Positions 6,088 to 22,428 of a stretch of DNA of 33,202 bases are shown piece after piece; the stretch's first letter is position 1; each line of letters begins with the position of its first letter. The notes beneath the pieces were generated by a model, which worked only from the letters and a program-made list of their open reading frames with translations, ran no database searches and had not been told where the DNA came from. The stretch is from Candidatus Dormiibacterota bacterium (GTDB lineage Bacteria; Chloroflexota; Dormibacteria; Aeolococcales; Bog-877). The stretch is taken from positions 1-33,202 of the forward strand of contig DAHUYV010000049.1 in NCBI GenBank assembly GCA_027306885.1, written 5' to 3'. The translations under genes were made by a program, and so were the position numbers.

Positions 6088-7494
6088 TCAGGCCGGGCCA
6101 CAGGGAAGCTCGACCAAGAAGTGGGCTCCCTCGGGCGGACCCTCCTCGAGCGAGATGGTGCCTTTGTGGGCCCGGGTTATGGCCGCCGCCAGCGCCAGCC
6201 CCAGCCCGGCGCCGCCGCCCTCGCGGCTCCGGCCCGGATCTGAGCCGGCGAATGGGAGGAAGAGGATCGGCCGCAGAGCTGGGTCCACGCCGGCTCCGGT
6301 GTCCTGCACCCCGAGCCGCCAGCGGGTTCGGCCCAGCTGGCAGGAGAGGGTGACCGTGCCCCCCGGCGGGGTGTGGCGGATGGCGTTGTCTATGAGGTTG
6401 TTGAGGAGCCGGCGCAGGAGGTCGGGGTCGCCCCAGACGGTGCCCTCCTGGGGCAGGTGGACGGCGACATTCACCCTGGTCCCCGCCGCGAGGGGGCGCC
6501 AGCGCTCGGCGGTCTCCTCCAAGAGGTCGAAGGCGTCGATCGTCCGGCAGGCCGGCTCCAGCGTCCCGACGTCCGCCCGGGCCAGCAGGAGGAGCTGGTC
6601 GGTGACCCGGCTGAGGCGCTCGGTCTCCGCGAGCACTATCCCCAGGGAGTCGCGGTATGCCTCCGGCCCCCGAGGTCGCTGGAGCACCACCTCCACCTCA
6701 GAACGGAGGGCCGTGAGCGGACCGCGCAGCTCATGGGCGGCGTCCGCAGTGAATCGTTGCAGGGCGGAGAAGGCGGCTTCGAGCCGGTCCAGCATCTGGT
6801 TGAAGGTCTGGGCGAGGGAGCCGAGCTCGTCGTCGGGCAGGTTGAGGTTCAGACGCCGGTCCAGGCTGTGCTCGCTGAGGTCCCGGGCGGTGAGGGTGAT
6901 GATCCGGACCGGGCGGAGCACCCGGCCCGCCAGCCAGTACGCGGAGAGGGCCGAGCCCACCGCCAGCACCAGGCCGGTCACCCCAAGGAGGGCGGCGGCC
7001 AGGTTCAGTGACTGCTGGTACTCATCGAGGGGGCGGTTTAGGACCAGCGCGTCAGTCTGCCCCCCGCCCACGTCGATGCGCTGGACCAGGGCCCTCTGGC
7101 TCACCCCGCCGGCCACCACCGTGTCCAGCACCGGGGCCCCACCCGTCTTGGGGCTCGCTCGCAGGGAGGCCAGCACGGTTCTGGCCCGGACCGCCTGCCC
7201 GGCCTGGTCAACCACTCGGCCGTCGCTGGCGACCACCATGGCACCGATGGAAGAGCCGTCCGGGGCCCGGCTGGGCAGGGTCGAGCTGCCGTTGAAGAGC
7301 ACTGACTCGCCGCTGGCGTGGAGGCCGGCGGCCAGGATCTGGGCCTCACCGCGCAGGCTGTTGTCGATGGCGGCGAGGGAGAGGTCGCTGAAGACCAGCC
7401 AGAAGGCCACCCCGCCGGCGCTGAGCACCACCGCCGCGCCGACGGTGTACGCCAGCGTCAGCCGGACGCGGGTGCGGCGGAGGAATGCGACCAC
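6088..7494 (-). CDS. sensor histidine kinase, HAMP-containing, OmpR-partner type
   Basis: The product is 468 residues. An N-terminal transmembrane helix (about residues 14-36) is followed by an extracytoplasmic sensor segment of about 120 residues. A second helix (LLGVTGLVLAVGSALSAYWLAG) leads into a HAMP linker. The HisKA H-box AAHELRGPLT has the phospho-acceptor His254, and the HATPase domain has N-box NLIDNAIRHTP, G1 DTGAGVDP and G2 GGAGLGLAL. It should phosphorylate the regulator encoded immediately upstream. Its GTG start at 7494 lies inside the 3' end of the regulator gene (37-base overlap), implying translational coupling. The sensor segment matches no ligand domain I recognise. The gene is convergent with the MacB-type ABC operon, which makes that operon a candidate target, unproven. 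Confidence 0.9.
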   Translation of the reverse strand: MVAFLRRTRVRLTLAYTVGAAVVLSAGGVAFWLVFSDLSLAAIDNSLRGEAQILAAGLHASGESVLFNGSSTLPSRAPDGSSIGAMVVASDGRVVDQAGQAVRARTVLASLRASPKTGGAPVLDTVVAGGVSQRALVQRIDVGGGQTDALVLNRPLDEYQQSLNLAAALLGVTGLVLAVGSALSAYWLAGRVLRPVRIITLTARDLSEHSLDRRLNLNLPDDELGSLAQTFNQMLDRLEAAFSALQRFTADAAHELRGPLTALRSEVEVVLQRPRGPEAYRDSLGIVLAETERLSRVTDQLLLLARADVGTLEPACRTIDAFDLLEETAERWRPLAAGTRVNVAVHLPQEGTVWGDPDLLRRLLNNLIDNAIRHTPPGGTVTLSCQLGRTRWRLGVQDTGAGVDPALRPILFLPFAGSDPGRSREGGGAGLGLALAAAITRAHKGTISLEEGPPEGAHFLVELPCGPA

Positions 7495-8171
7495 AGGCGA
7501 TCGGAGTCAAAGCGGTAGCCGGAGCCCCGGAGCGTCGCCAACGGATCGGGGAGCCCGTTGTCCGCCAGCTTGCGCCGGATGCGCGCTATGTAGACCTCGA
7601 CCAGGTTCGAGGTGCCGTCGAAGCTGTAGCTCCAGACGTGCTCTTCGATCTGGGAGCGGCTCAGCACCTGGCCCGGGTGATGGAGGAAGAACTCCAGGAT
7701 CGCGAACTCCTTGGCGGTGAGGATGAGCGGCACGCCTCGAACCGTGGCGCGCTTGGCGGCGACGTCCAGGGCCAGCTCCCCAGCCACCAGCAGGTTGGCC
7801 CGGTCCTCCACCTGGCGCCGCGCCAGTGCCCTCACCCGAGCCAGGAGCTCGCGGAAGGCGAAGGGCTTCACCAGGTAGTCGTCGGCTCCCGCCTCCAGCC
7901 CGCGCACCCGGTCGTCGATCCGGTCGCGGGCGGTGAGCATCAAAACGCAGGACGGCACTCGCAGCCGGCGAAGCCGGGCACAGACCGCGAAGCCGTCGAG
8001 CTCTCCCGGAAGCATCACGTCCAGCACGATCACATCGAATGCGGTGGTCATGGCGGCGGCCACCGCCTGCTCTCCGTTCTCGACCAGATCGACGGCGAGG
8101 CCCGCCTCTGCCAGCCCCCGATGTAGCGAAGCGGCCGTGGACCGGTCGTCCTCAACGATCAGGACGCGCAC
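7458..8171 (-). CDS. OmpR/PhoB-family response regulator
   Basis: From the chosen start the product is 237 residues. The receiver domain has acidic residues Asp8/Asp9, phospho-acceptor Asp51 (VIVLDVMLPG), the conserved Thr in LMLTARD and Lys in DDYLVKPF. The C-terminal winged helix contains LTAKEFAILEFFLHHPGQVLSR and the recognition region TSNLVEVYIARIRRKL, ending in LRGSGYRF. I place the start at GTG 8171, which begins VRVLIVEDD and has a purine-rich AGGGGGCGG just upstream. The frame extends to 8234 but adds only low-complexity residues. It heads a two-gene operon with the histidine kinase. Confidence 0.92.
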   Translation of the reverse strand: MRVLIVEDDRSTAASLHRGLAEAGLAVDLVENGEQAVAAAMTTAFDVIVLDVMLPGELDGFAVCARLRRLRVPSCVLMLTARDRIDDRVRGLEAGADDYLVKPFAFRELLARVRALARRQVEDRANLLVAGELALDVAAKRATVRGVPLILTAKEFAILEFFLHHPGQVLSRSQIEEHVWSYSFDGTSNLVEVYIARIRRKLADNGLPDPLATLRGSGYRFDSDRLWSHSSAAPASG

Positions 8172-8608: not shown

Positions 8609-10771
8609 ATGAGCAGTGGGGCGTCTCCGGAGCTTGTCCTCGGTCCGATCGGCGAGGCTTGGGCCCGGGCCGTGGAGCTCAGCTGGGAGGCCAACCAGCG
8701 GGGGAGCGTCCCGGTGGGAGCGGTCGTCACCGACCCCACCGGCCGCGTGGTGGCTGCCGGGCGCAGCCGCCGTGGGGAAGGGGAGGGGCTGCCCGGGCAA
8801 CTGACGGGCGGCAACCTGGCCCACGCGGAGATCAACGCTCTCGCCGGCCTGGGTCCCGGAGCCTACCTCGGCCACACTCTGTACACGACCCTGGAGCCCT
8901 GCCTCCTCTGCACCGCGGCCTCAGTGCATGCCCACATCGGCACCGTCCGGTTCGCGGCGCCGGACCCCCTGTGGGAGGGGGTGGACGGCCTGCCAGCCCT
9001 AAATCCCCAGGTGGCCCGGTGGTGGCCCCGGCGAGAAGGCCCGTTGGGGGGCCCACTTGGGGCCTGGACCCTCCTGCTCGCGATGTCGTGGCACCTCCGG
9101 ACCAACCCCAGCTCGCAGGTCGTCGGCGCGTATGAGAGGTCCGACCCAGCCGCCCTGGCGGTGGCGCGGCAGGCGGTGGCGGAGGGCCTGCCCCGGGCGC
9201 AGGACACCCTGGCGGATGCCCTGCGCTCCGTCTGGCACCTGATCGGTCCCGAGACGCCCCTCGCCACCCGGGGGCGGCTCACGCCTCCAGCCTTTGAGCA
9301 GGGCGCCAGGGGGTTTCCCCTCTCCCGACCGCCTCGGCCCACTCCGCTGATGGAGGCCTACCTCGCCGCCCGCCGCCGCCCCGCCCCCTCGTTCACGATC
9401 CCTGGGCACAAGGGCCGAATCGCCACCCTGGACCCCCGACTGGCGGTGGCGGTGGACTCCGACCGACCGCTCTTCGGCGGCCTCGACACGCCCAAGCTGG
9501 CGGTCGGCGTGCTCGATCGTGCCGAGCAGCTGGCCGCCGAGCACTACGGCGCTGACTGGTGCCGGTTCTCGGTTGGGGGGTCGACCCAGGCCAATCAGGC
9601 GCTCTGCCTGGCGATCGGCCAGCCGGGGGACCGGGTGATCGTCAGCCGCTCGCTGCACCGGTCTTTGCTCCTCGGCCTCATCCTGGCGGGGCTGGAGCCG
9701 CGATGGCTTCCAACCCGGAGCGACGAGGTCACCGGGCTGCCGATCGGGACCAGCCCCGTCGACCTGCGGGAGGCGCTCGCCGCCAACCCCGACGCCAAGG
9801 CGGTCCTGCTGACCGAGCCGGGGTACCTCGGAACGCTCTCCGACCTGCCGCAGCTGGCCGCCCTGGCCCACCAGGCGGGGATGCCAGTCCTCGTGGACCA
9901 GGCGTGGGGCGCACACTTTGGCTTCCACCCTGACCTGCCCTCCCACGCTCTGGCCGTCGGTGCCGACGCCCTCGTCACCAGCATCCACAAGCTGCTGCCC
10001 GGACACAGCCAGGCAAGCCTGGTTTGCGCCCGGCTGGAGCGGATGGACCGAGGCCGACTGGAGCGGGCGTTTCAGGCCACCCACACCACCAGCCCCGCCG
10101 GCTCGATCCTCGCCAGCATCGACGGGTCGCTCGGCCTCATGGAGACGAGGGGCCCGGAGCTGCTGGAGCCGGCCCTGCAGTTGGTGCGCTCGGCGCGGCG
10201 GGCACTGGCGGCGGCGCTCCCGGGCGTCGGGGTCCCTGACGAGTCCACCCTGAGCCGACTGGGGCCGGCGCGATTCGACCCCCTGAGGCTGGTGGTCCAG
10301 CTGGCGCCAATTGGGGCGGATGGGGTCGCGGTGGAGATGGCACTCCTGGAGCGGGACCTGGCCCTGGAGTTCGCCGATCGCGACACCCTGGTCCCGGTGG
10401 TCACCATCGCGGACGACCAGGGCACGGTGGCGGCGCTCACCGGAGGGATCGCCGAGGCGGTGAAGTCGTCCGGTTTCGGCCCGGCCCGTCCCCTGGGGCC
10501 GGCGGCCAGCTGGCAGGTGCGGCCGACCCTCGCCATGAGCCCCCGTGCCGCCTTCTTCGCCGCCCACGAGCGAGTCCCGGCCGACCTGGCGATCGGCCGG
10601 ACCGCGGCTGAGTTGGTGGCCCCATATCCCCCGGGGATACCGGTGCTGTCTCCCGGGGAGGTGATAACCGCGCCGCTGCTTGAGGCGCTGCGGGTGGCGG
10701 CCGCATCCGGGGTGCGGATCGCCTACGCGGCCGATCCCAGCCTTGAGACCCTGGAGGTGGTGCGGGATTAG
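8609..10771 (+). CDS. fusion: CDA/TadA-type deaminase + PLP Orn/Lys/Arg decarboxylase-like enzyme
   Basis: This is one uninterrupted frame of 720 residues. The N-terminal part (about 1-150) is a zinc-dependent nucleoside/base deaminase: His72-Ala-Glu74 (zinc ligand and proton shuttle) and Cys98/Cys101 in EPCLLC. A helical connector (about 150-245) follows. Residues from about 250 form a fold-type I PLP enzyme of the Orn/Lys/Arg decarboxylase class: FTIPGHKGR, GGSTQANQA, Asp430 in VLVDQAWGAHF (PLP ring contact) and the Schiff-base Lys461 in SIHKLLPGHSQAS. The C-terminal small domain has PPGIPVLSPGE. Both active sites look intact. ATG 8609 is preferred because residues upstream are low-complexity. 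Substrates are unknown, and the PLP half could be a decarboxylase or a related lyase. Neighbours give no pathway. A frame error joining two genes is unlikely, because the linker shows no stop or frame change. Confidence 0.82.
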   Translation: MSSGASPELVLGPIGEAWARAVELSWEANQRGSVPVGAVVTDPTGRVVAAGRSRRGEGEGLPGQLTGGNLAHAEINALAGLGPGAYLGHTLYTTLEPCLLCTAASVHAHIGTVRFAAPDPLWEGVDGLPALNPQVARWWPRREGPLGGPLGAWTLLLAMSWHLRTNPSSQVVGAYERSDPAALAVARQAVAEGLPRAQDTLADALRSVWHLIGPETPLATRGRLTPPAFEQGARGFPLSRPPRPTPLMEAYLAARRRPAPSFTIPGHKGRIATLDPRLAVAVDSDRPLFGGLDTPKLAVGVLDRAEQLAAEHYGADWCRFSVGGSTQANQALCLAIGQPGDRVIVSRSLHRSLLLGLILAGLEPRWLPTRSDEVTGLPIGTSPVDLREALAANPDAKAVLLTEPGYLGTLSDLPQLAALAHQAGMPVLVDQAWGAHFGFHPDLPSHALAVGADALVTSIHKLLPGHSQASLVCARLERMDRGRLERAFQATHTTSPAGSILASIDGSLGLMETRGPELLEPALQLVRSARRALAAALPGVGVPDESTLSRLGPARFDPLRLVVQLAPIGADGVAVEMALLERDLALEFADRDTLVPVVTIADDQGTVAALTGGIAEAVKSSGFGPARPLGPAASWQVRPTLAMSPRAAFFAAHERVPADLAIGRTAAELVAPYPPGIPVLSPGEVITAPLLEALRVAAASGVRIAYAADPSLETLEVVRD

Positions 10772-10790
10772 CCGACCGCCTGAAGCTTCC

Positions 10791-10819
10791 TTGACCTGTG
10801 GGGAGGGGAGGTTGATAAT
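10791..10819 (+). promoter_or_regulatory. promoter of the ABC-2/TetR operon
   Basis: A -35 TTGACC (10791-10796), a 17-base spacer and a -10 GATAAT (10814-10819), followed by ATG 10830 only 10 bases later, so the transcript would have at most a few leader bases. It is the closest match to a consensus housekeeping promoter in the window. Confidence 0.7.
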
Positions 10820-10836
10820 TCAACACTTGATGAATT
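10817..10836. promoter_or_regulatory. putative TetR-family operator over the transcription and translation start
   Basis: A 20-base imperfect palindrome, AATTCAACACTTGATGAATT, has matching half-sites in 8 of 10 positions. It overlaps the end of the -10, the expected +1 and ATG 10830. It is AT-rich against a GC-rich background, and a TetR-family gene is the last gene of this operon. Size and placement fit an autorepressor site. Confidence 0.6.
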
Positions 10837-11549
10837 ACGCGGTCGAGGTCCGGGGTCTCACCGTGGTGCGGGGGGGCCGTGCCGTGGTGGAGGGGGTCGA
10901 CCTTGTCGTTCCCGCCGGCACCCTGGTGGGGCTGCTGGGACCGAGTGGGGCGGGCAAGACGACGCTCATGCGAGCGATGGTCGGCGTCCAGCGGATCAGC
11001 GCGGGCAGCGTCACGGTGGTCGGTCATCCGGCCGGCTCTCCCGGGGCGCGCCCGTTGGTGGGGTACGTCACCCAGGCGCCCGCCGTCTATGGGGACCTCA
11101 CGGTGCGGGAGAATCTCGCCTACTTCGCCTCCATCCTGGGGGTCTCCGGGACCCGGGTCGGCGCGGCGATCCGCGAGGTCTCACTGGAAGGTCGGGCGGA
11201 GGACCGGGTGGGCAACCTGTCTGGCGGCGAGGTCTCGCGAGTGTCGCTGGCGACCGCCCTCCTGGCCAGCCCCCCACTCCTGATCCTGGACGAGCCCACA
11301 GTGGGGCTGGACCCCCTGCTCCGTGAGGACCTGTGGTCACTCTTCGCGCGACTGGCCGCCGAGGGCACCACCGTGCTGGTCTCGAGCCACGCGATGGACG
11401 AGGCCCGGCGCTGCCAACGGCTGGTCCTGCTCCGCGCCGGACGGGTGGTTGCCGATGAAGCCCCCACCGCCCTCCTTCGGCGGACAGGGGCTTCGGACCT
11501 GGACCGGGCCTTCCTGCAGGTGGTCCGGCAGCTGGAGCAGCCCGGGTGA
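10830..11549 (+). CDS. ABC-2 type exporter, ATP-binding protein
   Basis: The 239-residue ATPase has Walker A GPSGAGKTT, Q-loop VTQAPAVYGDLTVREN, signature LSGGEVSR, Walker B LLILDEPTVGLD and switch His in VSSHAMDE. It is of the DrrA/CcmA-like subfamily that drives ABC-2 exporters of drugs or lipids. ATG 10830 (MNYAVEVRGLTVVRGG) is chosen because a strong promoter lies immediately upstream and family homology begins here; there is no room for a Shine-Dalgarno, consistent with a near-leaderless message. The stop overlaps the GTG of the permease gene (GTGA), so the two should be translationally coupled. A TetR gene completes the operon. Confidence 0.9.
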   Translation: MNYAVEVRGLTVVRGGRAVVEGVDLVVPAGTLVGLLGPSGAGKTTLMRAMVGVQRISAGSVTVVGHPAGSPGARPLVGYVTQAPAVYGDLTVRENLAYFASILGVSGTRVGAAIREVSLEGRAEDRVGNLSGGEVSRVSLATALLASPPLLILDEPTVGLDPLLREDLWSLFARLAAEGTTVLVSSHAMDEARRCQRLVLLRAGRVVADEAPTALLRRTGASDLDRAFLQVVRQLEQPG

Positions 11550-12283
11550 GCCTCCGCCGCACCGCGGCCACCGCGTGGCGAGTGCTGCGCCAGCTGCGCC
11601 GGGACCCCCGCACCCTGGCCCTCATGATGCTGGTCCCCCTGGTCCTCATGGCCCTGCTCCGCTACATGTTCAACGACGATCGGAGCGTCTTCGATCGCAT
11701 CGCCCCCGAGCTGATCGGCCTCTTCCCCTTCGTCCTCATGTTCGTGGTCACCTCGGTGGCGATGCTCCGAGAGCGGTCCAGCGGTACCCTGGAGCGTCTC
11801 CTCGCCACCCCGGTGGCCAAGCTGGACATCCTCATTGGCTACGCTCTGGCCTTCGCGGCGACCGCGCTGGTACAGGTGGGCCTGGTCCTGGCGTTGGTGC
11901 TCGGGCCCCTCCAGGTGACGGTGAGGGGGAGCCTTCTGCTGATCGTCGTCTTCGCGGTGCTGGACGCCCTGCTCGGGGCCGGTTTGGGCCTCTGCTTCAG
12001 TGCGCTCGCCCGGACCGAGTTCCAGGCCGTGCAGCTCATGCCCGCCCTGGTCTTTCCGCAGGCCCTCCTCTGTGGCCTCTTCGTCCCCCGGAGCGCAATG
12101 ATCCCACCCCTCCAGGGGCTGGCCAACGCGCTGCCCCTCACCTATGCGGTGGACGGCATCACCCGCGCCGCCAGCTCCACGGCGTTCGGCACCGAGCTGC
12201 TCAAGGATCTCCTGGTGGTGCTGCTCTGCTGGCCCCTCGCCCTCCTGGTCGGCGCCCTCACCCTGCGACGGCGCACGCCTTGA
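11546..12283 (+). CDS. ABC-2 type exporter, permease
   Basis: The 245-residue membrane protein has the ABC-2 pattern. A cytoplasmic N-terminus has a LRRDPRTLALMMLVPLVLM entry helix. About six helices in total follow, with the conserved LRERSSGTLERLLATPV cytoplasmic segment after helix 2 and LPLTYAVDGITRA before the last helix. It forms the membrane channel for the ATPase encoded upstream, with which it overlaps by 4 bases. Its TGA overlaps the TTG of the TetR gene. Substrate is likely an antibiotic-like or lipophilic compound by analogy to DrrAB systems; this is inference. Confidence 0.9.
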   Translation: MSLRRTAATAWRVLRQLRRDPRTLALMMLVPLVLMALLRYMFNDDRSVFDRIAPELIGLFPFVLMFVVTSVAMLRERSSGTLERLLATPVAKLDILIGYALAFAATALVQVGLVLALVLGPLQVTVRGSLLLIVVFAVLDALLGAGLGLCFSALARTEFQAVQLMPALVFPQALLCGLFVPRSAMIPPLQGLANALPLTYAVDGITRAASSTAFGTELLKDLLVVLLCWPLALLVGALTLRRRTP

Positions 12284-12861
12284 GCCCGCGGTCGGGCCGC
12301 CGGCCGGGGAGCGAGGACACCAAGGCGGAGATCCTCGCCGTGGCCCGGCGGCTGTTCGCGCAGCGCGGGTACCGCGAGACCACCCTCCGGGACATCGGCG
12401 CCGCGGCCGGGGTCGACCCGTCCCTGGTCTCCCACTACTTCCAGTGCAAGGAGCGCCTCTTCTCGGTCGCCCTCGAGGTGCCCCTGGTTCCCGCCGAGAT
12501 CCTCGACCTGCTCCGCGGCGGCGACCCCTCGGGAGCCGGCGAGCGGGTCATCCGCTTCTTTTTCAGGCTGTGGGAGGGGCCGCCCACCCGCGAGCCCCTG
12601 CTGGCCATGCTGCGCTCCGCGGTCAGCGACGACCGGGCGCGGGAGCTTCTGGCCGGCTTCCTCGGGGCGGCGGTGGTCGAGCCGGTGGGGACCGTCCTCA
12701 AGGGTGCCGAGCGGGAGCTGCGCGCCACGCTGGTGGGCAGCCAGCTGGTGGGCCTGGCGGTGGCTCGCTACCTGCTTTGCATCGAGCCGCTGGCCTCTGC
12801 CGATCCTGAGCTGGTTGTCGCGTGGATCGCGCCCACCCTCCAGGGCTATCTGGCTGGGTGA
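12280..12861 (+). CDS. TetR-family transcriptional repressor of the ABC-2 operon
   Basis: The 193-residue protein has an N-terminal TetR DNA-binding domain. AEILAVARRLFAQRGYRETTLRDIGAAAGV (about 17-45) is followed by the recognition helix DPSLVSHYFQCKERLF. A helical ligand-binding domain ends in a C-terminal QGYLAG. The only plausible start is TTG 12280, whose bases overlap the permease stop TGA (TTGA), so expression depends on coupling. The first 10 residues are Arg/Gly/Pro-rich. Being the last gene of the exporter operon, it most likely represses the promoter at 10791-10819 through the palindrome at 10817-10836 and releases it on binding an exported compound. Confidence 0.9.
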   Translation: MSPRSGRRPGSEDTKAEILAVARRLFAQRGYRETTLRDIGAAAGVDPSLVSHYFQCKERLFSVALEVPLVPAEILDLLRGGDPSGAGERVIRFFFRLWEGPPTREPLLAMLRSAVSDDRARELLAGFLGAAVVEPVGTVLKGAERELRATLVGSQLVGLAVARYLLCIEPLASADPELVVAWIAPTLQGYLAG

Positions 12862-12927
12862 GGCGGGGCCAATCTCCTCCCTCGGTGGAACCGCAACCGG
12901 CGAGCTCTCCGCCCTGGTTGTGGGGGA

Positions 12928-12945
12928 GGTGGACCGATCTCCACC
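12928..12945. terminator. hairpin between convergent TetR and EamA genes
   Basis: GGTGGA and TCCACC form a perfect 6-bp stem with loop CCGATC in the gap between convergent genes. It lies 67 bases after the TetR stop. There is no U tract, so it is only a candidate terminator. Confidence 0.3.
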
Positions 12946-13124
12946 GCCATGGGCCCATCACCTGCGGCCCGTGACTCCCCCCCGGGGCGGCCGGGCACCG
13001 GCGCGGATGAACCGGGGCGGTCCAAGACGCGGTGGAGGGCAGGCCGCCCTCCGGCGGTCGCCCCAGGGGCGCAGGGCGTCGCTCGCGGCATCCAGCCGCC
13101 CACCGAGGGCGCGGGTCCCCGTGG

Positions 13125-13952
13125 TCACACGCCGATCAGGACCACGGCCATGGCGGCCACCGCCAGCCCCAGCTTCTGGATCCCGCTCCATCGCTCCCCG
13201 AGGCCGAACCTCGCTAGCACCCCGGTGACGGCCGGGTACAGGGAGCTGATCACGGCGACGATGGCGAGCTGGGAGACCCCGGTGGCTTCGAGGAAGAGGA
13301 TGTTCCCGATTCCCCCGAGGGCGCCCGCCGCGATCGCCAGCGGAGCCACCCTCCGCCAGCTGCGCCGCTGGCCGCCAAGGCGCGTGGCCACGGTCGCGAT
13401 GGTCACCAGCGCGACCAGCTGGCCCGCCACCAGCGGCCAGGTTCCTGAGCCGGTCCCGGCCCGGTCCAGGCTGATGAAGAGCAAAGCGAAGCTGGCCCCG
13501 GCGACAACCGCCTCGGGGATCCCCCGCGGCCGACGGTGCGCCCTCCCGCCCTGCCAGGAAACCATCGCCACCGCCGGGATCGCCACCACAATGCCCACCA
13601 GCGCCAGCTGCCCCGGGCGGTCGCCCAGGGCGAGCCCCACCGCCGCGGGGATGAGGGCGGTGAGCACCCCGGCCAGGGTCGCGACCACCGTCATCTCACC
13701 GATGGCCAGCCCTCGGTACAGGGCGAGGATCCCAACCGCGCTGCCCACGCCGCTGACCGCCCCCCATCCCAGGCTGGCCGGGGCCGGCCCGGTCCAGGGG
13801 AAAAGCCAGAGCCCCAACACGGCGGTGACCAGGCCGAGCGGCTGGCTCAGCAGGGCCACGATGGCGGCGTGGCCCCGGCGTCCCGCCACCCCCGCCAGGA
13901 AGTCCGAGGCGCCGTAGCCCACCGCCGCGGCCAGGCTGAGAGCTATCCCCAT
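13125..13952 (-). CDS. EamA/DMT-family transporter
   Basis: The product is 275 residues made almost entirely of hydrophobic helices (about ten), arranged as two EamA repeats. The first repeat starts MGIALSLAAAVGYGASDFLAG and contains VSGVGSAVGILALYRGLAIGEMTVVATLAGVLTALIP. The second starts near PEAVVAGASFALLFISL and contains NILFLEATGVSQLAIVAVISSLYPAVTGVLA, the typical signature before the last helix. Such proteins export or import amino acids, purines or other metabolites. I choose ATG 13952, where the hydrophobic core begins; the open frame further upstream translates to shadow sequence of the divergent CGNR gene. It is divergent from the CGNR regulator, which could control it. Confidence 0.85.
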   Translation of the reverse strand: MGIALSLAAAVGYGASDFLAGVAGRRGHAAIVALLSQPLGLVTAVLGLWLFPWTGPAPASLGWGAVSGVGSAVGILALYRGLAIGEMTVVATLAGVLTALIPAAVGLALGDRPGQLALVGIVVAIPAVAMVSWQGGRAHRRPRGIPEAVVAGASFALLFISLDRAGTGSGTWPLVAGQLVALVTIATVATRLGGQRRSWRRVAPLAIAAGALGGIGNILFLEATGVSQLAIVAVISSLYPAVTGVLARFGLGERWSGIQKLGLAVAAMAVVLIGV

Positions 13953-14043
13953 CGCCAAGCGTCGGCCGGCGAAGAGAGGGTGAACCGGGGCTGCCCGGTG
14001 GCGGCGGTGGGAGCGGTCAGGACGCGGGGCACGATTTGTGATG

Positions 14044-14070
14044 TTACCAGCGAAAGCTGTTTTCAGGTAA
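14044..14070. promoter_or_regulatory. imperfect palindrome between divergent EamA and CGNR genes
   Basis: TTACC (14044-14048) and GGTAA (14066-14070) are exact inverted arms around a 17-base AT-richer centre. The right arm touches the -35 of the CGNR gene promoter. The left side is at a TAACAT hexamer that could be a minus-strand -10 for the EamA gene. A plausible operator for the CGNR regulator or another factor. Confidence 0.4.
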
Positions 14071-14098
14071 GACAAAGCGGGCTGCCTTCGACTACAGT
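14069..14098 (+). promoter_or_regulatory. promoter of the CGNR regulator gene, near-leaderless
   Basis: AAGACA (14069-14074), an 18-base spacer and TACAGT (14093-14098), followed after 7 bases by ATG 14106. The -35 matches consensus at four of six positions. The start codon would lie at about +2. Confidence 0.55.
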
Positions 14099-14105
14099 GG
14101 AGGCG

Positions 14106-14792
14106 ATGGGCCGCGTTCCGCCAGCGTTCACCGACGGGTCCGAGCAGCGGCACCGTGCCGGTCGGGCTCCCGGCGATCTGGCCCTGCTGCAGTCCTTCGT
14201 CAACACCTGGGATGCCGAGGGCGGCCGCGACCTCCTGGACTCCCCGGCGGCGGTGGGGGCGTGGCTTTCCGCCCACGGCTGGACGGGCGAGTCCGAGGAG
14301 ATCACTCCTGTCGATCAGCGCCGGACCACGGAGTTTCGCGAGGCCCTCCGGCTCCTGCTGGCGGCCAACAACCCGGCCCTGTTCGTGGAGGAAAAGGCGC
14401 TGGCCCGCGCCGCTGCCCAGCTGACCGCGGCGGCCCGGCGAGGCCGCCCTGCCCTCCGCGTCGGCGCCGAAGGTCGCGTCGAACTGGGGGCGGTGGATGG
14501 CGGGGTCGATGGGGCGCTGATTCGCCTCCTGGCGATCGCCCTCCACGCCCAGGCTGAGGGGCGCTGGTCGCGGATCAAGGTCTGTCGGGCGCAGGGCTGC
14601 CGCTGGGCCTTCTACGACCGCTCGAGGGGCCGCACAGCCACCTGGTGTGCCATGGCCACCTGTGGGAGCCGGGCCAAGATGCGCTCGTATCACCGTCGGC
14701 GCTCGGTGGGGGTGGGCGCTCCGCTCAGTGCCGCCCTCGGCGATCCCGGAGTGGCCGGGCGCCCCCCGCCCCCGCTGCTACCCTCGCCCTGA
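14106..14792 (+). CDS. CGNR zinc-finger transcriptional regulator
   Basis: The 228-residue protein has an N-terminal helical ABATE-like domain (about 20-155; LLQSFVNTWDAE, then FREALRLLLAAN), the putative ligand-sensing part. A C-terminal zinc finger has Cys160, Cys165, Cys181 and Cys186 in the CRAQGC...WCAMATCGSR pattern, followed by a basic KMRSYHRRR tail. The family motif CGNR is CGSR here (Ser188). A Pro-rich C-terminus of about 25 residues follows. ATG 14106 is positioned at about +2 of the predicted promoter. The TGA overlaps the ATG of the S9 peptidase gene by one base, so the two are an operon. Confidence 0.88.
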   Translation: MGRVPPAFTDGSEQRHRAGRAPGDLALLQSFVNTWDAEGGRDLLDSPAAVGAWLSAHGWTGESEEITPVDQRRTTEFREALRLLLAANNPALFVEEKALARAAAQLTAAARRGRPALRVGAEGRVELGAVDGGVDGALIRLLAIALHAQAEGRWSRIKVCRAQGCRWAFYDRSRGRTATWCAMATCGSRAKMRSYHRRRSVGVGAPLSAALGDPGVAGRPPPPLLPSP

Positions 14793-16618
14793 TGGACGTA
14801 GGCATCTCAACCTTCCTCGGGCTTCCCGTCTGGCGCGCCTTCGACGTGGACGACCAGGGCCGGGTGCTGGCGGGTTGCGATGCCCCGGGTTCGGTGCAGC
14901 TGGTGGAGCTGGACCCGGCGGGGGGGAGCAGCTGGCTCACAGCGCTCTCCGGCAACTGCTCGGGTCGCTACCTGACCGGCCTGCGGACGGTGGTGGTCCA
15001 GCACGATGAGGGTGGCGACGAGCGCCAGCAGCTCTCCACCCTGGCCCTCCAGCCCGCGCCCGCCGCCCCGGTCGCCCTGGAGGGGCTGACGCCCCTGGTG
15101 CGCGACCCCCGGTTCCTGCACAACCTCATCGACGTCCTGCCCGGCCGGGTGGTGTACGCCACCAACCGGCGCAACTCCGTCGACTTCGATGTCGTGGTGC
15201 GGACGATCGACACCGGCGAGGAGACCGTGGTGTACGACGAGGGCGGTGCGGTCGAGGACTTCGCGATGGCCGACGACGGGCTGACCGCCGTCGTGTCGCG
15301 CTCGGCGAGCCGCCCGATGTCCCAGCAGCTCCTGCTGCTCGGCCTCGCCGGGCGGCCGACCACGGCGCTCACCGATTCCGAGGAACCGGCCCAGCACCTC
15401 CTCCCCCGCTGGGCCGGAGGGTCCCTTATCGTCACCACCGACCGGGCCCGGGAGAACACGGTGGTCGCTCGCCTCGATCCGTTCGGGGGCGGCTGGGCCG
15501 ACCTTGTCGTGGCGCCGGGCCGGGACCTCACCGCCTGGCCCTCCCCCGACGGGCGCCTTCTGCTGGTGCGGACCAACGAGGACGGGGTCGCGCGGCTGGC
15601 CCTGCACGACGGCACCAGTGGCGAGTGGCTCAGGACCCTGGCCCTCCCTGACGAGGGCTGGGTGGGGGAGCCAGGGCTGCCGGCCCCGGTGTGGGCGCCG
15701 GGGTCCCGCTTCCTGGCCATCTCCTTCAGCAGCCCGGGGGTGCCGGGCAACGTGCTCCTGGTCGACGCGCAGTCGGGGTCGGTCAGCACCGTGGCGGACA
15801 GCACCGCGCCGCTGGACGGGGCCGCCGTCGCCCGTCCCACCAGCCACCGGGTGCCCACCCCCGACGGCCGGTCGATCCCCTGCTTCGTCTACGGCCCCTC
15901 GGCCTCCCCCCAGCCCGAGCTGGCCGGGTCTTCGGTGCTGCACATCCACGGAGGACCGGAGTCGCAGTCGGTCTGCGCATTCAACCCGGTGATCCAGGGG
16001 CTGGCGGCCGCGGGTCACACGGTGGTGGTGCCCAACGTGCGCGGCTCGACGGGGTATGGCCGGAGCTGGTACTCCGCCGATGACGTTCGCCTGCGCCTCG
16101 ATTCCGTGGCCGACCTGGCCGCGGTTCACTCATTCCTGCCGACCCTGGGGCTGGACCCAGCTCGCGCCGCCCTCTGGGGTGGGTCGTACGGCGGCTACAT
16201 GGTCCTGGCCGGCCTCTCCTTCCAGCCGGGGCTCTGGGCCGCCGGGGTGGACATCGTGGGCATCTCCTCTCTGGTCTCCTTCCTGGAGAACACCTCCGCC
16301 TACCGGCGCTCCCAGAGGGAGCCGGAGTACGGGTCGCTGGAGCGCGATCGCGACTTCCTGGAGGCGGCCTCGCCGCTCAACCGCGTCGATCAGATGCGGG
16401 CCCCTCTGTTCGTCATCCACGGCGCCAACGACCCCCGGGTGCCCCTTGGCGAGGCCCAGCAGCTGACCGCGGCGCTCCGGGCCCGGGGGGTGGAGTGCCA
16501 GTTGCTGGTCTACCTCGACGAGGGCCACGGCCTCGCCAAGCGGGCCAACCGGCTGGACGCGTACCCGAGGGCCCTGGACTTCCTCGCCCGCCACCTCGGA
16601 GGTGGGCCGGCGCGCTGA
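14792..16618 (+). CDS. S9 family (prolyl oligopeptidase-like) serine peptidase
   Basis: The product is 608 residues. The N-terminal part (about 1-360) is rich in short beta repeats of WD/TolB-propeller kind (for example AWPSPDGRLLLVRTNEDG and WAPGSRFLAISFS). The C-terminal alpha/beta hydrolase has oxyanion-side HIHGGPE, nucleophile Ser465 in WGGSYGGYM, Asp547 in HGANDPRVP and His579 in DEGHGLAK. It is probably an acylaminoacyl- or dipeptidyl-peptidase-like enzyme. I see no signal peptide, so it should be cytoplasmic. The start ATG 14792 overlaps the regulator's TGA (TGATG). A TACCCT hexamer 7 bases upstream could give an extra internal leaderless promoter, but no -35 is evident. Confidence 0.9.
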   Translation: MDVGISTFLGLPVWRAFDVDDQGRVLAGCDAPGSVQLVELDPAGGSSWLTALSGNCSGRYLTGLRTVVVQHDEGGDERQQLSTLALQPAPAAPVALEGLTPLVRDPRFLHNLIDVLPGRVVYATNRRNSVDFDVVVRTIDTGEETVVYDEGGAVEDFAMADDGLTAVVSRSASRPMSQQLLLLGLAGRPTTALTDSEEPAQHLLPRWAGGSLIVTTDRARENTVVARLDPFGGGWADLVVAPGRDLTAWPSPDGRLLLVRTNEDGVARLALHDGTSGEWLRTLALPDEGWVGEPGLPAPVWAPGSRFLAISFSSPGVPGNVLLVDAQSGSVSTVADSTAPLDGAAVARPTSHRVPTPDGRSIPCFVYGPSASPQPELAGSSVLHIHGGPESQSVCAFNPVIQGLAAAGHTVVVPNVRGSTGYGRSWYSADDVRLRLDSVADLAAVHSFLPTLGLDPARAALWGGSYGGYMVLAGLSFQPGLWAAGVDIVGISSLVSFLENTSAYRRSQREPEYGSLERDRDFLEAASPLNRVDQMRAPLFVIHGANDPRVPLGEAQQLTAALRARGVECQLLVYLDEGHGLAKRANRLDAYPRALDFLARHLGGGPAR

Positions 16619-16648
16619 GTCGCCGCTGCCGCCGACCTTCCGGTCTCG

Positions 16649-16663
16649 AAGCGCACAGCGCTT
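16649..16663. promoter_or_regulatory. perfect short palindrome upstream of the MFS gene
   Basis: AAGCGC-ACA-GCGCTT, a 6-bp perfect inverted repeat, 30 bases after the peptidase stop and about 44 bases (centre) before the TATACT -10 at 16700. It could terminate the peptidase transcript or be an operator for the exporter gene. Confidence 0.35.
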
Positions 16664-16699
16664 GGCGCCCGGGGAAGCTGGAGGTCCTGCGGTGGACCC

Positions 16700-16705
16700 T
16701 ATACT
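16700..16705 (+). promoter_or_regulatory. -10 element of the MFS gene
   Basis: TATACT, an excellent -10, stands in the short GC-rich gap after the peptidase gene. No good -35 occurs 16-19 bases upstream, so activator dependence is possible. Confidence 0.4.
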
Positions 16706-16729
16706 GAGATCAGCTTTCGGTGGCGGCTG

Positions 16730-18268
16730 GTGCCAGCCGTGCCTCCCTTCCCCCTCACAGGTGCTGTGTTGTCCCTGGTGCCCGCGGCTCCCGGCCACCC
16801 TCGGCGGTGGCTGATCCTGGCGGTGGTCACCGTGGTGGCCTTCATCGGCAACGTGGACGGAACCATCGTGGTGGTGGGCCTGCCCCGGATCGTGGCCGGC
16901 CTCCACACCACGGTCACCACCGGCCTCTGGACCCTCACCGGCTACATCATCACCAGCACCGTCTTCCTGCTTCCGGCCGGCCGCTGGTCGGATGTGATCG
17001 GCCGCAAACGGATCTTCCTTGTCGGGGTCGGCCTGTTCACGGTGGGCACGATGCTGTGCGGCCTCGCCTCCAGCGGCGAGGTGCTGGTCGGGTGGCGGCT
17101 GCTCCAGGGCGTCGGAGCGGCGCTCTCCTCAGCCACCGCGGTGCCGCTCATCGTGGGCGCCTTCCGCCCATCTGAGACCGGCCGGGCGCTGGGGATCAAC
17201 TCAACAGCCTGGGTGATGGGCTCGATCGTCGGCCCGGTCGCCGGCGGCGCCCTGGTGGGCACCCTGGGCTGGCGCTGGATCTTCTATGTCACGGTGCCCT
17301 TCGCCGCAGCTGGCCTCGTGGCCGGGGCGCTCCTGCTGCCCAACGACCACGCCTCGGGGCGCGGGCTGGCCACCGACTGGGCGGGCGCCGGCGCTTTCAC
17401 GGCGGCGCTGGTGGCGCGTCTCGTCGCGCTCTCGGAGGGGCTGGCGTGGGGTTGGGGCTCGGCTCGGATCATCGGCCTCCTGGCGGTGAGCGCGGTCTGC
17501 CTCGCCTTCTTCGTGGCCTGGGAGCTGCGCGCGCGCCGGCCCACCTTCGATCTGCGGCTGCTGCGCAACCGGCAGCTGCGGGTGGCCCTGGCGGTGGTCA
17601 GCTTCTACGCCACCGGGATGTTCGCGACCACCTTCCTTCTCACCTTCTACCTGCAGGGAGCCTTGCGCCTCAGCCCCCTCGAAGCGGGTCTGGCGCTTCT
17701 GCCGATCGCGGTGCCGCAGCTGGTGCTGGCTCCGCTGGGCGGGGCGCTGGCCGACCGGCTGGGTCCGGCCCGCCCGGTGATCCTCGGGCTCGCCTTCCTC
17801 ATCTTGGGCGCCGTCCTGCTGAGCCGGCTCGGAACTCGGCTCGACCTGGTGGCCGTCGTGGTTCCCCTGCTGTGCGTCTCGGCCGGCAACGGGTTTGCCT
17901 GGCCCGCCCTGACCAAGGCGGTGGTCTCCTCAGCGCCCCGGGAGCGGACCGGGGTGGCCTCGGGCATGTTCTTCACCCTGCGCAACGTGGGGATGGCCCT
18001 CTCCTTCACCCTCGCTCTGGTGGTCGCCGAGGCCAGCCTGCCACCCTCGGTGGCGGTTCGGGTCTTCCTCGGGGCGGGTGGGGTGCTGAGCGGGCACCTG
18101 GGCCGGGCCCTGGTCCAGTCCACCGATGCTGGCTTCCGGGTCTTCGCCGGCTTCTGCGCGGTGGCCTTCCTCTTGGCTTTCCTGCTCCTGCGCACCCACC
18201 TGGCCCCGGTGGCGGCGACCGAGCGGGCCGGGGAGCCGCATCCCGAGAGGGCCGCCAGCGCCAGCTGA
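16730..18268 (+). CDS. MFS multidrug-type exporter, DHA2 (EmrB/QacA-like, 14 helices)
   Basis: The 512-residue protein has about 14 hydrophobic helices. The first helix carries the DHA2 signature (VAFIGNVDGTIVVVGLPRI, cf. LDxTIVNVALP). The loop 2-3 motif A appears as GRWSDVIGRKRIF, and motif C-like GSIVGPVAGGALVGTLGWRWIF ends helix 5, followed by ATPs typical of proton-driven drug exporters. A degenerate motif A repeat, GALADRLGPARPV, marks the second half. It probably extrudes hydrophobic toxic compounds. Start GTG 16730 is approximate: there is no Shine-Dalgarno, and a GTG at about 16769 (MLSLVPAAPGHPRRW) would also precede the first helix. Orientation matches the upstream peptidase operon, but a separate -10 is visible. 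Confidence 0.88.
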   Translation: MPAVPPFPLTGAVLSLVPAAPGHPRRWLILAVVTVVAFIGNVDGTIVVVGLPRIVAGLHTTVTTGLWTLTGYIITSTVFLLPAGRWSDVIGRKRIFLVGVGLFTVGTMLCGLASSGEVLVGWRLLQGVGAALSSATAVPLIVGAFRPSETGRALGINSTAWVMGSIVGPVAGGALVGTLGWRWIFYVTVPFAAAGLVAGALLLPNDHASGRGLATDWAGAGAFTAALVARLVALSEGLAWGWGSARIIGLLAVSAVCLAFFVAWELRARRPTFDLRLLRNRQLRVALAVVSFYATGMFATTFLLTFYLQGALRLSPLEAGLALLPIAVPQLVLAPLGGALADRLGPARPVILGLAFLILGAVLLSRLGTRLDLVAVVVPLLCVSAGNGFAWPALTKAVVSSAPRERTGVASGMFFTLRNVGMALSFTLALVVAEASLPPSVAVRVFLGAGGVLSGHLGRALVQSTDAGFRVFAGFCAVAFLLAFLLLRTHLAPVAATERAGEPHPERAASAS

Positions 18269-18451: not shown

Positions 18452-19198
18452 GTGCCCGAACCAAGCTTCGATCGCCTTGCCGCCATCGAGGGGCACAGCG
18501 CGGGCTTCGCCGCCGCCGCCGACGGCAACCTCGAGGCGAAGGTGGCGGGCTGCCCGGGCTGGACGGTTGGCGACCTGGTGCGGCACCTCACCGAGGTCCA
18601 TTGGTTCTGGACCACGGTGGTGGAGGAGCAGCAGCCCGCGCCGCCCGACGAATCCCGGCGCCCGGCGGATGCCTCAGAAGATCACCTGATCGAGGTCTTC
18701 CGGGCCGGCGCGGCCCGGCTGGTGTCGGTGCTCCGGCTGGCGGACCCCAAGGCGCGGTGCTGGACCTGGGCGCCCGCCCAGCAGGACGTGGCGTTCGTCG
18801 TGCGCCACCAGGTGCAGGAGGCGGCGGTCCACCACTGGGACGCCGCCCACGCCGCGGGCCGGCAGCTGGTGATCGACCCCGAGGTCGCGGCCGACGCGGT
18901 GGACGAGTTCCTCACCTTCTCGGTCTCCAGCCCGGCCGACCCCGCCGATCCTCCGCGACCGGCCCTGGAGGGTCGCCTGGCCCTGATCTGCAGCGACATC
19001 GACGCGGCCTGGACCGTCGAGGATGGGGAGGTCCAGGGGACTGTGGTCCACTCCCGGGGGGCGCCCGCGGCGACTCCGGCGATGGTTGCCCGGGCCTCCG
19101 ACCTGCTCCTCTGGCTGTACCGGCGGGTTGAGCTGGACACCGGAGCTGTGGACGGCGCTCTGGCCGAGCGCCTCCGGGCGCTCTGCTTCACGGGCTGA
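18452..19198 (+). CDS. maleylpyruvate isomerase/mycothiol-dependent (MDMPI, DinB-fold) family protein
   Basis: The 248-residue protein has an N-terminal DinB-like four-helix bundle carrying the metal triad pattern His45 (DLVRHL), Glu123 and His127 (VQEAAVHHWD), and the CPGWTVGDLVRHLTEVH segment typical of MDMPI_N proteins. A C-terminal alpha/beta domain (about 150-245) ends in DLLLWLYRR, typical of the family's second domain. Family members act as thiol-dependent isomerases or S-transferases using mycothiol or bacillithiol; the substrate here is unknown. The start GTG 18452 sits exactly at the predicted +1. The 3' end overlaps the convergent FtsH-like gene by 11 bases. Confidence 0.85.
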   Translation: MPEPSFDRLAAIEGHSAGFAAAADGNLEAKVAGCPGWTVGDLVRHLTEVHWFWTTVVEEQQPAPPDESRRPADASEDHLIEVFRAGAARLVSVLRLADPKARCWTWAPAQQDVAFVVRHQVQEAAVHHWDAAHAAGRQLVIDPEVAADAVDEFLTFSVSSPADPADPPRPALEGRLALICSDIDAAWTVEDGEVQGTVVHSRGAPAATPAMVARASDLLLWLYRRVELDTGAVDGALAERLRALCFTG

Positions 19199-20786
19199 GG
19201 CCGGGAGGCGCTTCGAGGGAGGTCTCCGGCTGCGCCCGCCACTCCGGGCTGCGGCCCAGGATCGCGCCGACCTCTCCCGCGTTAAGGGTCTCGCGGGCCA
19301 CCAGCTCCTGCGCCAGCGAGCGCACCGCGTCCCAGCTGGCCTCGAGCTGAGCCCGCGCCCGCCCCTGAGCGGAATCCAGGAGCTGGCGGATCGCCTCGTC
19401 GATCAGGTGGGCATAGGCGTCGCTGATCCCGGGTCCGAGCAGCCCGGCGCTGAGGCGCACGGCCTCCAGGGCGGCGTAGTCGGCGGGCCCGATGCTGGAC
19501 ATCCCCCAGCGCCAGACCATGTTGGCGGCGATCATCGTCGCCTCGCGCATGTCGTCCTCGGAGGCGGTGCTCACGTCACCGTCGTAGCGCACCTCCTCGG
19601 CCACCCGTCCGCCGAAGGCCGCCACCATCCGGGCCCGCAGCTCGGAGGCGGTGAAGTCCGAGGTGTCCTTGGCCGAGCCGGCGGCGCTGGTCCCGGTTCG
19701 CCTTCCCCGCGGGGTGATGTTGAGGGCGGCGGGTGCCGCCCGCAGCGGGCCCAGCACCGCCGCCACCGCGCGACCGGCCTCGTGGTACGCGGCCCGCTCC
19801 CGTTCCTCCCGGCTGAGGGTGACAGTCCGGGCGGGCCCCAGGAGCACCTGCTGATACGAGGCCTCGAGAGCGTCCATCCGGATCTCGGCGCGGTCGAGGC
19901 GGGCCGACCAGAGCGCCGCCCGGTTGACCAGGTTCTTCAGGTGGGCCCCGGTCCAGCCGGTGGTCTGCCCGGCGATCCGGTCCAGGTCCACCTCCGAGCC
20001 CAGCGGCATCTGAGAAGTCTGAATCCGAAGGATGGCCAGCCGCCCGGCCCGGTCGGGGACGTGGACCGTGATCTGCTGGTCGAACCGTCCCGGCCGGAGC
20101 AGGGCGGGGTCGAGGACGTCCACCCGGTTGGTGGCGGCGAGCACCACCAGGCGGGAGCGGGGCGTGAACCCATCGAGCTCGGTGAGCAGCTGATTGAGCG
20201 TGTGATTCTGTTCGGCGGTGCCGCCGGCGGCCCCCTGGCGGCGGCCGCCCACGGCGTCCACCTCGTCGATGAAGACGATCGCCGAACCCGCCTCGCGGGC
20301 CTTGGCAAAGAGCTGGCGGACCCGGCTGGCGCCGAGCCCCACGTACACCTCCACGAACTCCGAACCTGCCATGTGGATGAAGGGGACCCCGGCCTCCCCG
20401 GCGACGGCCCGGGCCAGCAGCGTCTTGCCGGTGCCCGGTTCACCCACGAGGAGGACGCCGCGCGGGAGCTGGCAGCGCAGGCGCCAGTACCGCTCCGGAT
20501 GGCGCAGGAAGTCGACGATCTGGACCAGCTCGTCCCGGACCTCATCGATCCCGCCCACACTGGCGAAGGTGATCGGCTCCTCGGGGGGGCCGGGCGTTGC
20601 CACCACGGGCCCTGGGTGCTGACGCCGGCTCCAGATCCCGCCGCGCGTCCCCCCGCCACCTTGGGCGGCCGCCAGCAGCCACCCAAAGGGGGCCCCCACG
20701 CCGGCTTGGGGACCGAGGGCCGCCGGAACCAGCGCCAGCCGCGGACGGCGTGCCCAGTGCGCCCACCCCGGCTCCCACCCGGTCAC
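19188..20786 (-). CDS. FtsH-like AAA protein with disrupted zinc motif (probable pseudoprotease)
   Basis: The product is 532 residues. The AAA module is complete: Walker A GEPGTGKT (Lys121), pore loop FVEVYVGLGASRVR, Walker B IVFIDEVDAVGG and second region of homology NRVDVLDPALLRPGRFDQ. The M41 peptidase region follows, but the HEXXH motif reads HEAGR (His335, Glu336, Arg339). Arg replaces the second zinc-binding His (CGC where CAC is expected). The third-ligand region STASEDDMREAT is kept. The N-terminus has only one weak hydrophobic stretch (about 17-41) instead of two clear transmembrane helices. It is thus probably an ATP-driven unfoldase or remodelling factor without proteolysis, like plant FtsHi proteins; that is inference. 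GTG 20786 is chosen; GGAGAG lies about 12 bases before it. Confidence 0.85.
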   Translation of the reverse strand: MTGWEPGWAHWARRPRLALVPAALGPQAGVGAPFGWLLAAAQGGGGTRGGIWSRRQHPGPVVATPGPPEEPITFASVGGIDEVRDELVQIVDFLRHPERYWRLRCQLPRGVLLVGEPGTGKTLLARAVAGEAGVPFIHMAGSEFVEVYVGLGASRVRQLFAKAREAGSAIVFIDEVDAVGGRRQGAAGGTAEQNHTLNQLLTELDGFTPRSRLVVLAATNRVDVLDPALLRPGRFDQQITVHVPDRAGRLAILRIQTSQMPLGSEVDLDRIAGQTTGWTGAHLKNLVNRAALWSARLDRAEIRMDALEASYQQVLLGPARTVTLSREERERAAYHEAGRAVAAVLGPLRAAPAALNITPRGRRTGTSAAGSAKDTSDFTASELRARMVAAFGGRVAEEVRYDGDVSTASEDDMREATMIAANMVWRWGMSSIGPADYAALEAVRLSAGLLGPGISDAYAHLIDEAIRQLLDSAQGRARAQLEASWDAVRSLAQELVARETLNAGEVGAILGRSPEWRAQPETSLEAPPGLSP

Positions 20787-22398: not shown

Positions 22399-22428
22399 GT
22401 AGGGGCCGCTCGCGTGAGCTGCCCCTAC
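22399..22428. terminator. strong bidirectional hairpin between convergent genes
   Basis: GTAGGGGC (22399-22406) pairs perfectly with GCCCCTAC (22421-22428). After one mismatch, GCTC pairs with GAGC around a GCGT tetraloop. The 12-bp total stem contains the stop codon of the minus-strand P1B ATPase gene (22425-22427) and lies 31 bases after the plus-strand stop. It very likely ends both transcripts. Confidence 0.6.

What the first reader, a model, noticed from the sequence alone, without database searches (positions are those of the whole stretch)
8609..10771. Single-chain fusion of a zinc deaminase and a PLP-dependent decarboxylase-like enzyme
The sequence shows one 720-codon frame in which a CDA/TadA-type deaminase (His72, Glu74, Cys98, Cys101) is followed by a complete Orn/Lys/Arg decarboxylase-like PLP enzyme (Asp430, Schiff-base Lys461, C-terminal small domain). 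Both families are known, but I know of no characterised protein combining them. If both halves are active, the chain could deaminate an amino-heterocycle or nucleoside-like compound and then act on an amino-acid-type product, or make a modified nucleoside or polyamine conjugate. The approximately 100-residue helical linker and the absence of pathway neighbours suggest a self-contained activity.
Basis: partly seen in the sequence, partly recalled or inferred. Interest (0 to 1): 0.8.

Follow-up and report, generated by a model that had tools for sequence, protein, structure and literature searches.

The report
One-off deaminase–decarboxylase gene fusion
In one uncultured bacterium two ordinary, normally separate enzyme genes, a zinc deaminase and a vitamin-B6 (PLP) amino-acid decarboxylase, read as a single 720-residue protein; the joint looks like former spacer DNA, so this is either a recent accidental fusion or a one-base sequence error, not evidence of a new pathway.

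Summary
The reading frame is real as sequenced: 8609-10771 (+) encodes 720 residues with a TadA-like deaminase (His72/Glu74/Cys98/Cys101) followed by a short-form Orn/Lys/Arg-decarboxylase-type PLP enzyme (Asp430, Lys461, C-terminal domain). All named catalytic residues are conserved. The "helical linker" is not a linker: residues about 120-212 are the deaminase family's own C-terminal region, present in stand-alone relatives and folded confidently by AlphaFold2. The true joint is about 30 disordered residues (214-243). In roughly 1,300 searched genomes, a pattern scan of 84,980 species and the plasmid collection, every relative is one half or the other, never both. In the same genus both halves are separate genes on different contigs. 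The joint lacks codon signature (log-odds -6.2; only 4 of 2,150 gene windows as low), looks like intergenic DNA, and carries TGATG (an overlapping stop/start one frame off) at the decarboxylase start. So this is a recent, lineage-specific fusion of two neighbouring genes, or a one-base indel in the assembly; reads would decide. A different deaminase of this family is fused to a GNAT acetyltransferase, so fusion partners are not fixed. No evidence for channelling or a shared pathway. Interest is low to moderate.

The parts
8609..10771 (+). 720-codon ORF: deaminase + short-form OKR decarboxylase
8609..9244 (+). TadA-like zinc deaminase with its family C-terminal helical region (residues 1-212)
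   Evidence: PF00383; 52% over residues 13-218 to a stand-alone relative with a 228-aa open frame, G124; alignment A3; AF2 mean pLDDT 87, below 50 only at 224-236; best fold matches TadA
8822..8830 (+). HAE motif: zinc ligand His72, proton-shuttle Glu74
   Evidence: invariant in 18 relatives
8900..8911 (+). CxxC motif: zinc ligands Cys98 and Cys101
   Evidence: invariant in 18 relatives
9248..9337 (+). true inter-domain joint (residues 214-243), intergenic-like composition, predicted disordered
   Evidence: coding log-odds -6.2, 4 of 2150 gene windows as low; GC3 25/33; pLDDT below 50 at 224-236
9348..9352 (+). TGATG: stop codon in frame +1 overlapping the only ATG near the decarboxylase start
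   Evidence: the dinucleotide TG before an ATG has about 5% chance
9341..10771 (+). short-form (no receiver/wing domain) Orn/Lys/Arg-decarboxylase-type PLP enzyme, residues 245-720
   Evidence: 63-65% identical to stand-alone genes of the same genus
9896..9898 (+). Asp430, pyridine-N aspartate (DQAWGAHF motif)
   Evidence: invariant
9989..9991 (+). Lys461, Schiff-base lysine (SIHK motif)
   Evidence: invariant
10830..12861 (+). downstream ABC-2 exporter ATPase and permease, then a TetR regulator; own promoter-like site at 10791-10819 (neighbour, not part of the fusion)
   Evidence: kept in G007 next to a remnant of the decarboxylase
6088..8171 (-). divergent histidine kinase and response regulator upstream (neighbours, not part of the fusion)
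   Evidence: genus relatives in G003

Best explanation
A recent, lineage-specific fusion of two neighbouring genes. The first encodes a member of a 210-240-residue TadA-like hydrolytic deaminase family (zinc-bound water attacks an amino-purine, amino-pyrimidine or nucleoside, releasing ammonia). The second is a duplicate of the genus's stand-alone short-form PLP decarboxylase homologue (Lys461 holds PLP, an amino acid loses CO2). Loss of the reading-frame break between them turned about 30 codons of spacer into a flexible joint. Each half most likely folds and works on its own, co-expressed at fixed ratio; the fusion need not mean a shared pathway. Shown: frame, domains, conserved catalytic residues, separate relatives, non-coding-like joint. 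Inferred: that each half is active, the substrates, and that the fused message is translated as one protein.
For: Both domains score above Pfam cut-offs with catalytic residues invariant. Stand-alone relatives end or begin close to the joint: deaminases of 210-240 aa, decarboxylases with the conserved core from residue 245 onward and a non-conserved N-terminal stretch before it. Joint residues 214-243 have coding log-odds -6.2 against a gene median of 10.6 (4 of 2150 windows as low), while 25% of intergenic windows score as high. TGATG lies at the decarboxylase start. The decarboxylase half is sister to the genus's stand-alone copies (100/100). G000 has lost the copy at the syntenic genus position: flanks lie 31 bp apart on C60. 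G007 and G001 keep 90-96% identical remnants of this second copy beside the same ABC transporter, so the second locus is genuine. Another family member, in G1015, is fused to a GNAT domain instead.
Against: The fusion is seen in one genome only, a draft of 170 contigs, so an artefact cannot be excluded. The remnants in G007 and G001 cover only about the last 30-60 residues of the decarboxylase and cannot show whether the fusion existed there. No activity data.
Confidence: 0.6

Rival explanations
1. Artefact: the real sequence is a two-gene operon, with the deaminase stop either at 9348 (TGATG overlap with the decarboxylase ATG) or at 9295; a one-base indel error in the GC-rich joint hides the break.
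For: The joint is non-coding-like. Frame +1 has a stop at 9348 overlapping the only in-frame ATG, and frame +2 a stop at 9295 that would give a deaminase of about 229 aa, a normal family length. All relatives are separate genes. The joint has G and C runs.
Against: The sequence as given has one frame throughout. A recent true indel would look the same. Large-scale mis-assembly is less likely: left-flank genes have relatives in G003, right-flank genes are 94-98% identical at protein level in G007, and base composition is even.
Confidence: 0.27
2. A selected bifunctional enzyme: the deaminase makes a substrate for the decarboxylase, or both act in one pathway.
For: Both active sites are intact. 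Short-form decarboxylases with an added domain are known: the F. nucleatum ornithine decarboxylase-arginase-like fusion, confined to Fusobacteriaceae (PMC8503589).
Against: No relative carries both halves in one match in any search. G007 and G002 hold both on different contigs. The joint is non-coding-like. In the F. nucleatum precedent the added domain is probably inactive. The deaminase also occurs fused to an unrelated GNAT domain.
Confidence: 0.08
3. A decaying gene: the second decarboxylase copy is on its way out and the fusion has no function, as with the remnants in G007 and G001.
For: Remnants of this copy in G007 and G001; the genus's other copy is also shortened in G001 and G004; weak codon signature compared with other window genes.
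Against: Full-length frame with all catalytic residues kept; codon signature positive over most of the gene.
Confidence: 0.05

Closest known systems
Short-form ('ancestral form') AAT-fold Orn/Lys/Arg decarboxylase homologues (B. subtilis SpeA/YaaO type; PDB 2x3l, S. aureus; PF01276+PF03711)
   Same: Large PLP domain and small C-terminal domain without the receiver ('wing') domain; Asp/Lys/PYPPG motifs; 2x3l is the best PDB hit; about 475-500 aa alone
   Different: Carries an N-terminal deaminase. Closest named relatives are actinobacterial MAGs; the function of actinobacterial and cyanobacterial short forms is unknown and probably not polyamine synthesis (PMC8503589).
TadA/CDA-type zinc deaminases (PF00383; TadA PDB 3ocq, 7cph, 1z3a)
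   Same: HAE...PCxxC zinc site; TadA structures are the best sequence and fold matches
   Different: 22-32% identity to the TadA chains in the fold search, far below the NCBIfam TadA cut-off (41.5 vs 150 bits), with an added C-terminal helical region; the genome's more likely TadA lies elsewhere (G000:C44).
F. nucleatum short-form ODC-arginase-like fusion (PMC8503589)
   Same: A short-form decarboxylase joined to a second enzyme-like domain in one narrow lineage
   Different: There the extra domain is C-terminal, arginase-like and probably inactive; here it is an N-terminal deaminase with an intact motif.
Deaminase-GNAT fusion in G1015 (L160)
   Same: Same deaminase family with a second enzyme appended at its C-terminus
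   Different: Partner is a GNAT acetyltransferase, so the partner is not conserved.

Membership tests
Short-form Orn/Lys/Arg decarboxylase family (PF01276/PF03711) | Both Pfam domains above cut-off | tested here: met
   135.4 vs 27 bits and 37.1 vs 24.2 bits
Short-form Orn/Lys/Arg decarboxylase family (PF01276/PF03711) | Schiff-base Lys in S-x-H-K and pyridine Asp | tested here: met
   Lys461 and Asp430 invariant in 28 sequences
Short-form Orn/Lys/Arg decarboxylase family (PF01276/PF03711) | No N-terminal receiver/wing domain | tested here: met
   No receiver-domain match in the chain; the N-terminal part is a deaminase
Short-form Orn/Lys/Arg decarboxylase family (PF01276/PF03711) | Decarboxylates Orn, Lys or Arg | not testable with these tools
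   All NCBIfam decarboxylase equivalogs far below cut-off; function of actinobacterial homologues unknown (PMC8503589)
CDA/TadA zinc deaminase superfamily (PF00383) | H-A-E ... P-C-x-x-C zinc/catalytic motif | tested here: met
   His72, Glu74, Cys98, Cys101 invariant; fold matches TadA
tRNA adenosine-34 deaminase TadA | Score above the NCBIfam TadA equivalog cut-off | tested here: not met
   41.5 bits vs cut-off 150
Established bifunctional deaminase-decarboxylase family | Fused architecture conserved in relatives | tested here: not met
   No match spanning both halves outside the window (the one long match, G1100, was read and is a stand-alone deaminase); deaminase-family hits lack a decarboxylase half

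The most novel reading that the evidence does not exclude
A genuine, translated and active bifunctional enzyme in which a nucleobase/nucleoside deaminase and a PLP decarboxylase of unknown substrate work on the same modified nucleoside or amino-acid conjugate, revealing the function of the uncharacterised actinobacterial short-form decarboxylases.
Probability: 0.04. Interest if true: 0.7.

Novelty: new variant of a known kind. Interest (0 to 1): 0.28.

Why it matters
As it stands, it is a domain combination found nowhere else in these searches, caught at or near birth: the joint still looks like spacer DNA. It is mildly useful as an example of recent gene fusion and as a warning about fusions called from single metagenome assemblies. 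The two families are the more interesting open question: short-form decarboxylase homologues in Actinomycetota have no known function (PMC8503589), and I found no name for the deaminase family with the C-terminal helical region.

Tried and rejected
Mixed deaminase/decarboxylase alignments A2 and A4: deaminase tails aligned onto the decarboxylase half, so no full-length fold was submitted; only the deaminase half was modelled, and whether the two active sites face each other was not tested. In one search the decarboxylase query was one base out of frame; corrected. Literature searches for the fusion or for both Pfam names together: nothing. Considered that the deaminase is the genome's TadA: rejected, since another TadA-like gene exists (G000:C44) and the score is far below the TadA cut-off. 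Large-scale mis-assembly is judged unlikely because both flanks have relatives in the genus. Two deaminase hits with long open frames in other genomes (G491, G621) were read: the extra length is upstream and not decarboxylase.

Full report
The observation. Window 8609-10771 (+) is one open frame of 720 codons. Pfam finds a zinc deaminase domain at residues 19-116 and both Orn/Lys/Arg-decarboxylase domains at 292-534 and 636-695, all above the curated cut-offs. G+C by codon position shows coding structure from 8609 to the end of the gene and none upstream, so ATG 8609 is a sensible start.

Correction of the linker. Stand-alone relatives of the first half are 210-240 residues long and align with it to about residue 212. 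The closest found, in G124, is 52% identical over residues 13-218 in an open frame of 228 aa. AlphaFold2 on 18 aligned relatives gives a confident model (mean pLDDT 87.4, pTM 0.85) in which residues 148-212 are mostly helices and only 224-236 fall below 50. The best solved-structure matches are TadA enzymes. The conserved core of stand-alone decarboxylases begins at residue 245. The joint is residues 214-243.

The joint. With a codon table from 16 other genes of the window, residues 214-243 score -6.2, against a median of 10.6 for 30-codon windows in those genes (leave-one-out); 4 of 2150 gene windows are as low, while 25% of intergenic windows score at least as high. GC3 is 25 of 33 codons; 0.5% of gene windows are that low. 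Caution: the fused gene is weaker than its neighbours elsewhere too (residues 121-150 score -4.7), and a Pro/Gly/Arg-rich linker could depress the score by itself. The only ATG in frame near the decarboxylase start is at 9350, and it overlaps a stop in frame +1, TGATG; such an overlap arises by chance in about 5% of cases. Frame +2 has a stop at 9295. My reading (inference) is that two closely spaced genes became one frame through loss of a frame break, in nature or in the assembly. A 33-codon stretch of this composition is open by chance 59% of the time, so openness alone proves little.

Relatives. In 101 genomes from the same genus to the same class, matches cover one half or the other. A pattern scan of 84,980 species gave 24 loci, all decarboxylase only. 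A profile of the deaminase family found it in 12 of 110 genomes of the class and 21 of 400 of the phylum at E <= 1e-12; none but the window carries a decarboxylase half. In 395 genomes each of two further classes, reached through actinobacterial loci, both families occur but no match joins both; in those two searches only the best candidates per genome were scored. One match there ran from residue 18 to 360 (G1100); read directly, it is a stand-alone deaminase of about 220 aa. Plasmids: 118 records, none covering 80% of the query. G002 and G007, same genus, hold both families as separate genes on different contigs, though their deaminases are only about 40% identical to the window's.

History. 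The decarboxylase half is sister to the genus's stand-alone copies (100/100 support). Three of those sit in a conserved gene neighbourhood. At the matching place in the window's genome the flanking genes lie 31 bp apart and the decarboxylase is absent. Window 10594-13122, which includes the last 59 codons of the fused gene and the ABC transporter, is 95% identical in G007, where the rest of the gene is missing; G001 shows a similar 91-bp remnant at a contig end. So a second decarboxylase copy beside this ABC transporter is older than this one genome, and has been lost in its relatives. Whether it was already fused there cannot be told.

Neighbours. A divergent histidine kinase and response regulator lie upstream. 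An ABC-2 exporter and a TetR regulator lie downstream, with a promoter-like site between. None points to a pathway, and deaminase relatives have varied neighbours.

How it works. The deaminase half should carry out zinc-dependent hydrolytic deamination of an amino-purine, amino-pyrimidine or nucleoside (inference from family). The second half should form a Schiff base between Lys461 and PLP and decarboxylate an amino acid (inference from family). Substrates are unknown: the TadA model scores 41.5 against a cut-off of 150, and no decarboxylase equivalog comes near its cut-off. Li et al. 2021 (PMC8503589) report that actinobacterial and cyanobacterial short-form homologues have no known function and are probably not polyamine enzymes. 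They also describe a short-form ornithine decarboxylase fused to a probably inactive arginase-like domain, confined to Fusobacteriaceae, which shows that such fusions need not be functional pairs. In G1015 the same deaminase family is fused to a GNAT acetyltransferase.

Verdict. A real open frame combining two known enzyme families, unique in everything searched; most likely a recent local fusion, with a substantial chance of a one-base artefact.

Noticed in passing
window 22425-24743 (-): P-type ATPase (E1-E2_ATPase and Hydrolase domains) with a C-terminal hemerythrin domain in one chain, next to a second P-type ATPase at 24733-27093 (-).
   Followed up: no
L160 (G1015:C2:1134000-1143000): Deaminase of the same family fused to a GNAT acetyltransferase, 377-aa open frame.
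   Followed up: partly
L062 (G001:C203), L069 (G004:C79), L057 (G002:C25): Decarboxylase copies in G001 and G004 match only part of the gene, and the deaminase of G002 is broken into two frames, suggesting these genes are dispensable in the genus.
   Followed up: partly
L063 (G007:C40) compared with window 13637-18203: G007 is 95% identical over 10594-13122, then carries window segments 13637-13991 (inverted) and 17903-18203 side by side, with the S9 peptidase and most of the MFS gene missing between them.
   Followed up: no
window 19188-20606 (-): AAA+ ATPase with an M41 peptidase domain (FtsH-like), 472 aa.
   Followed up: no
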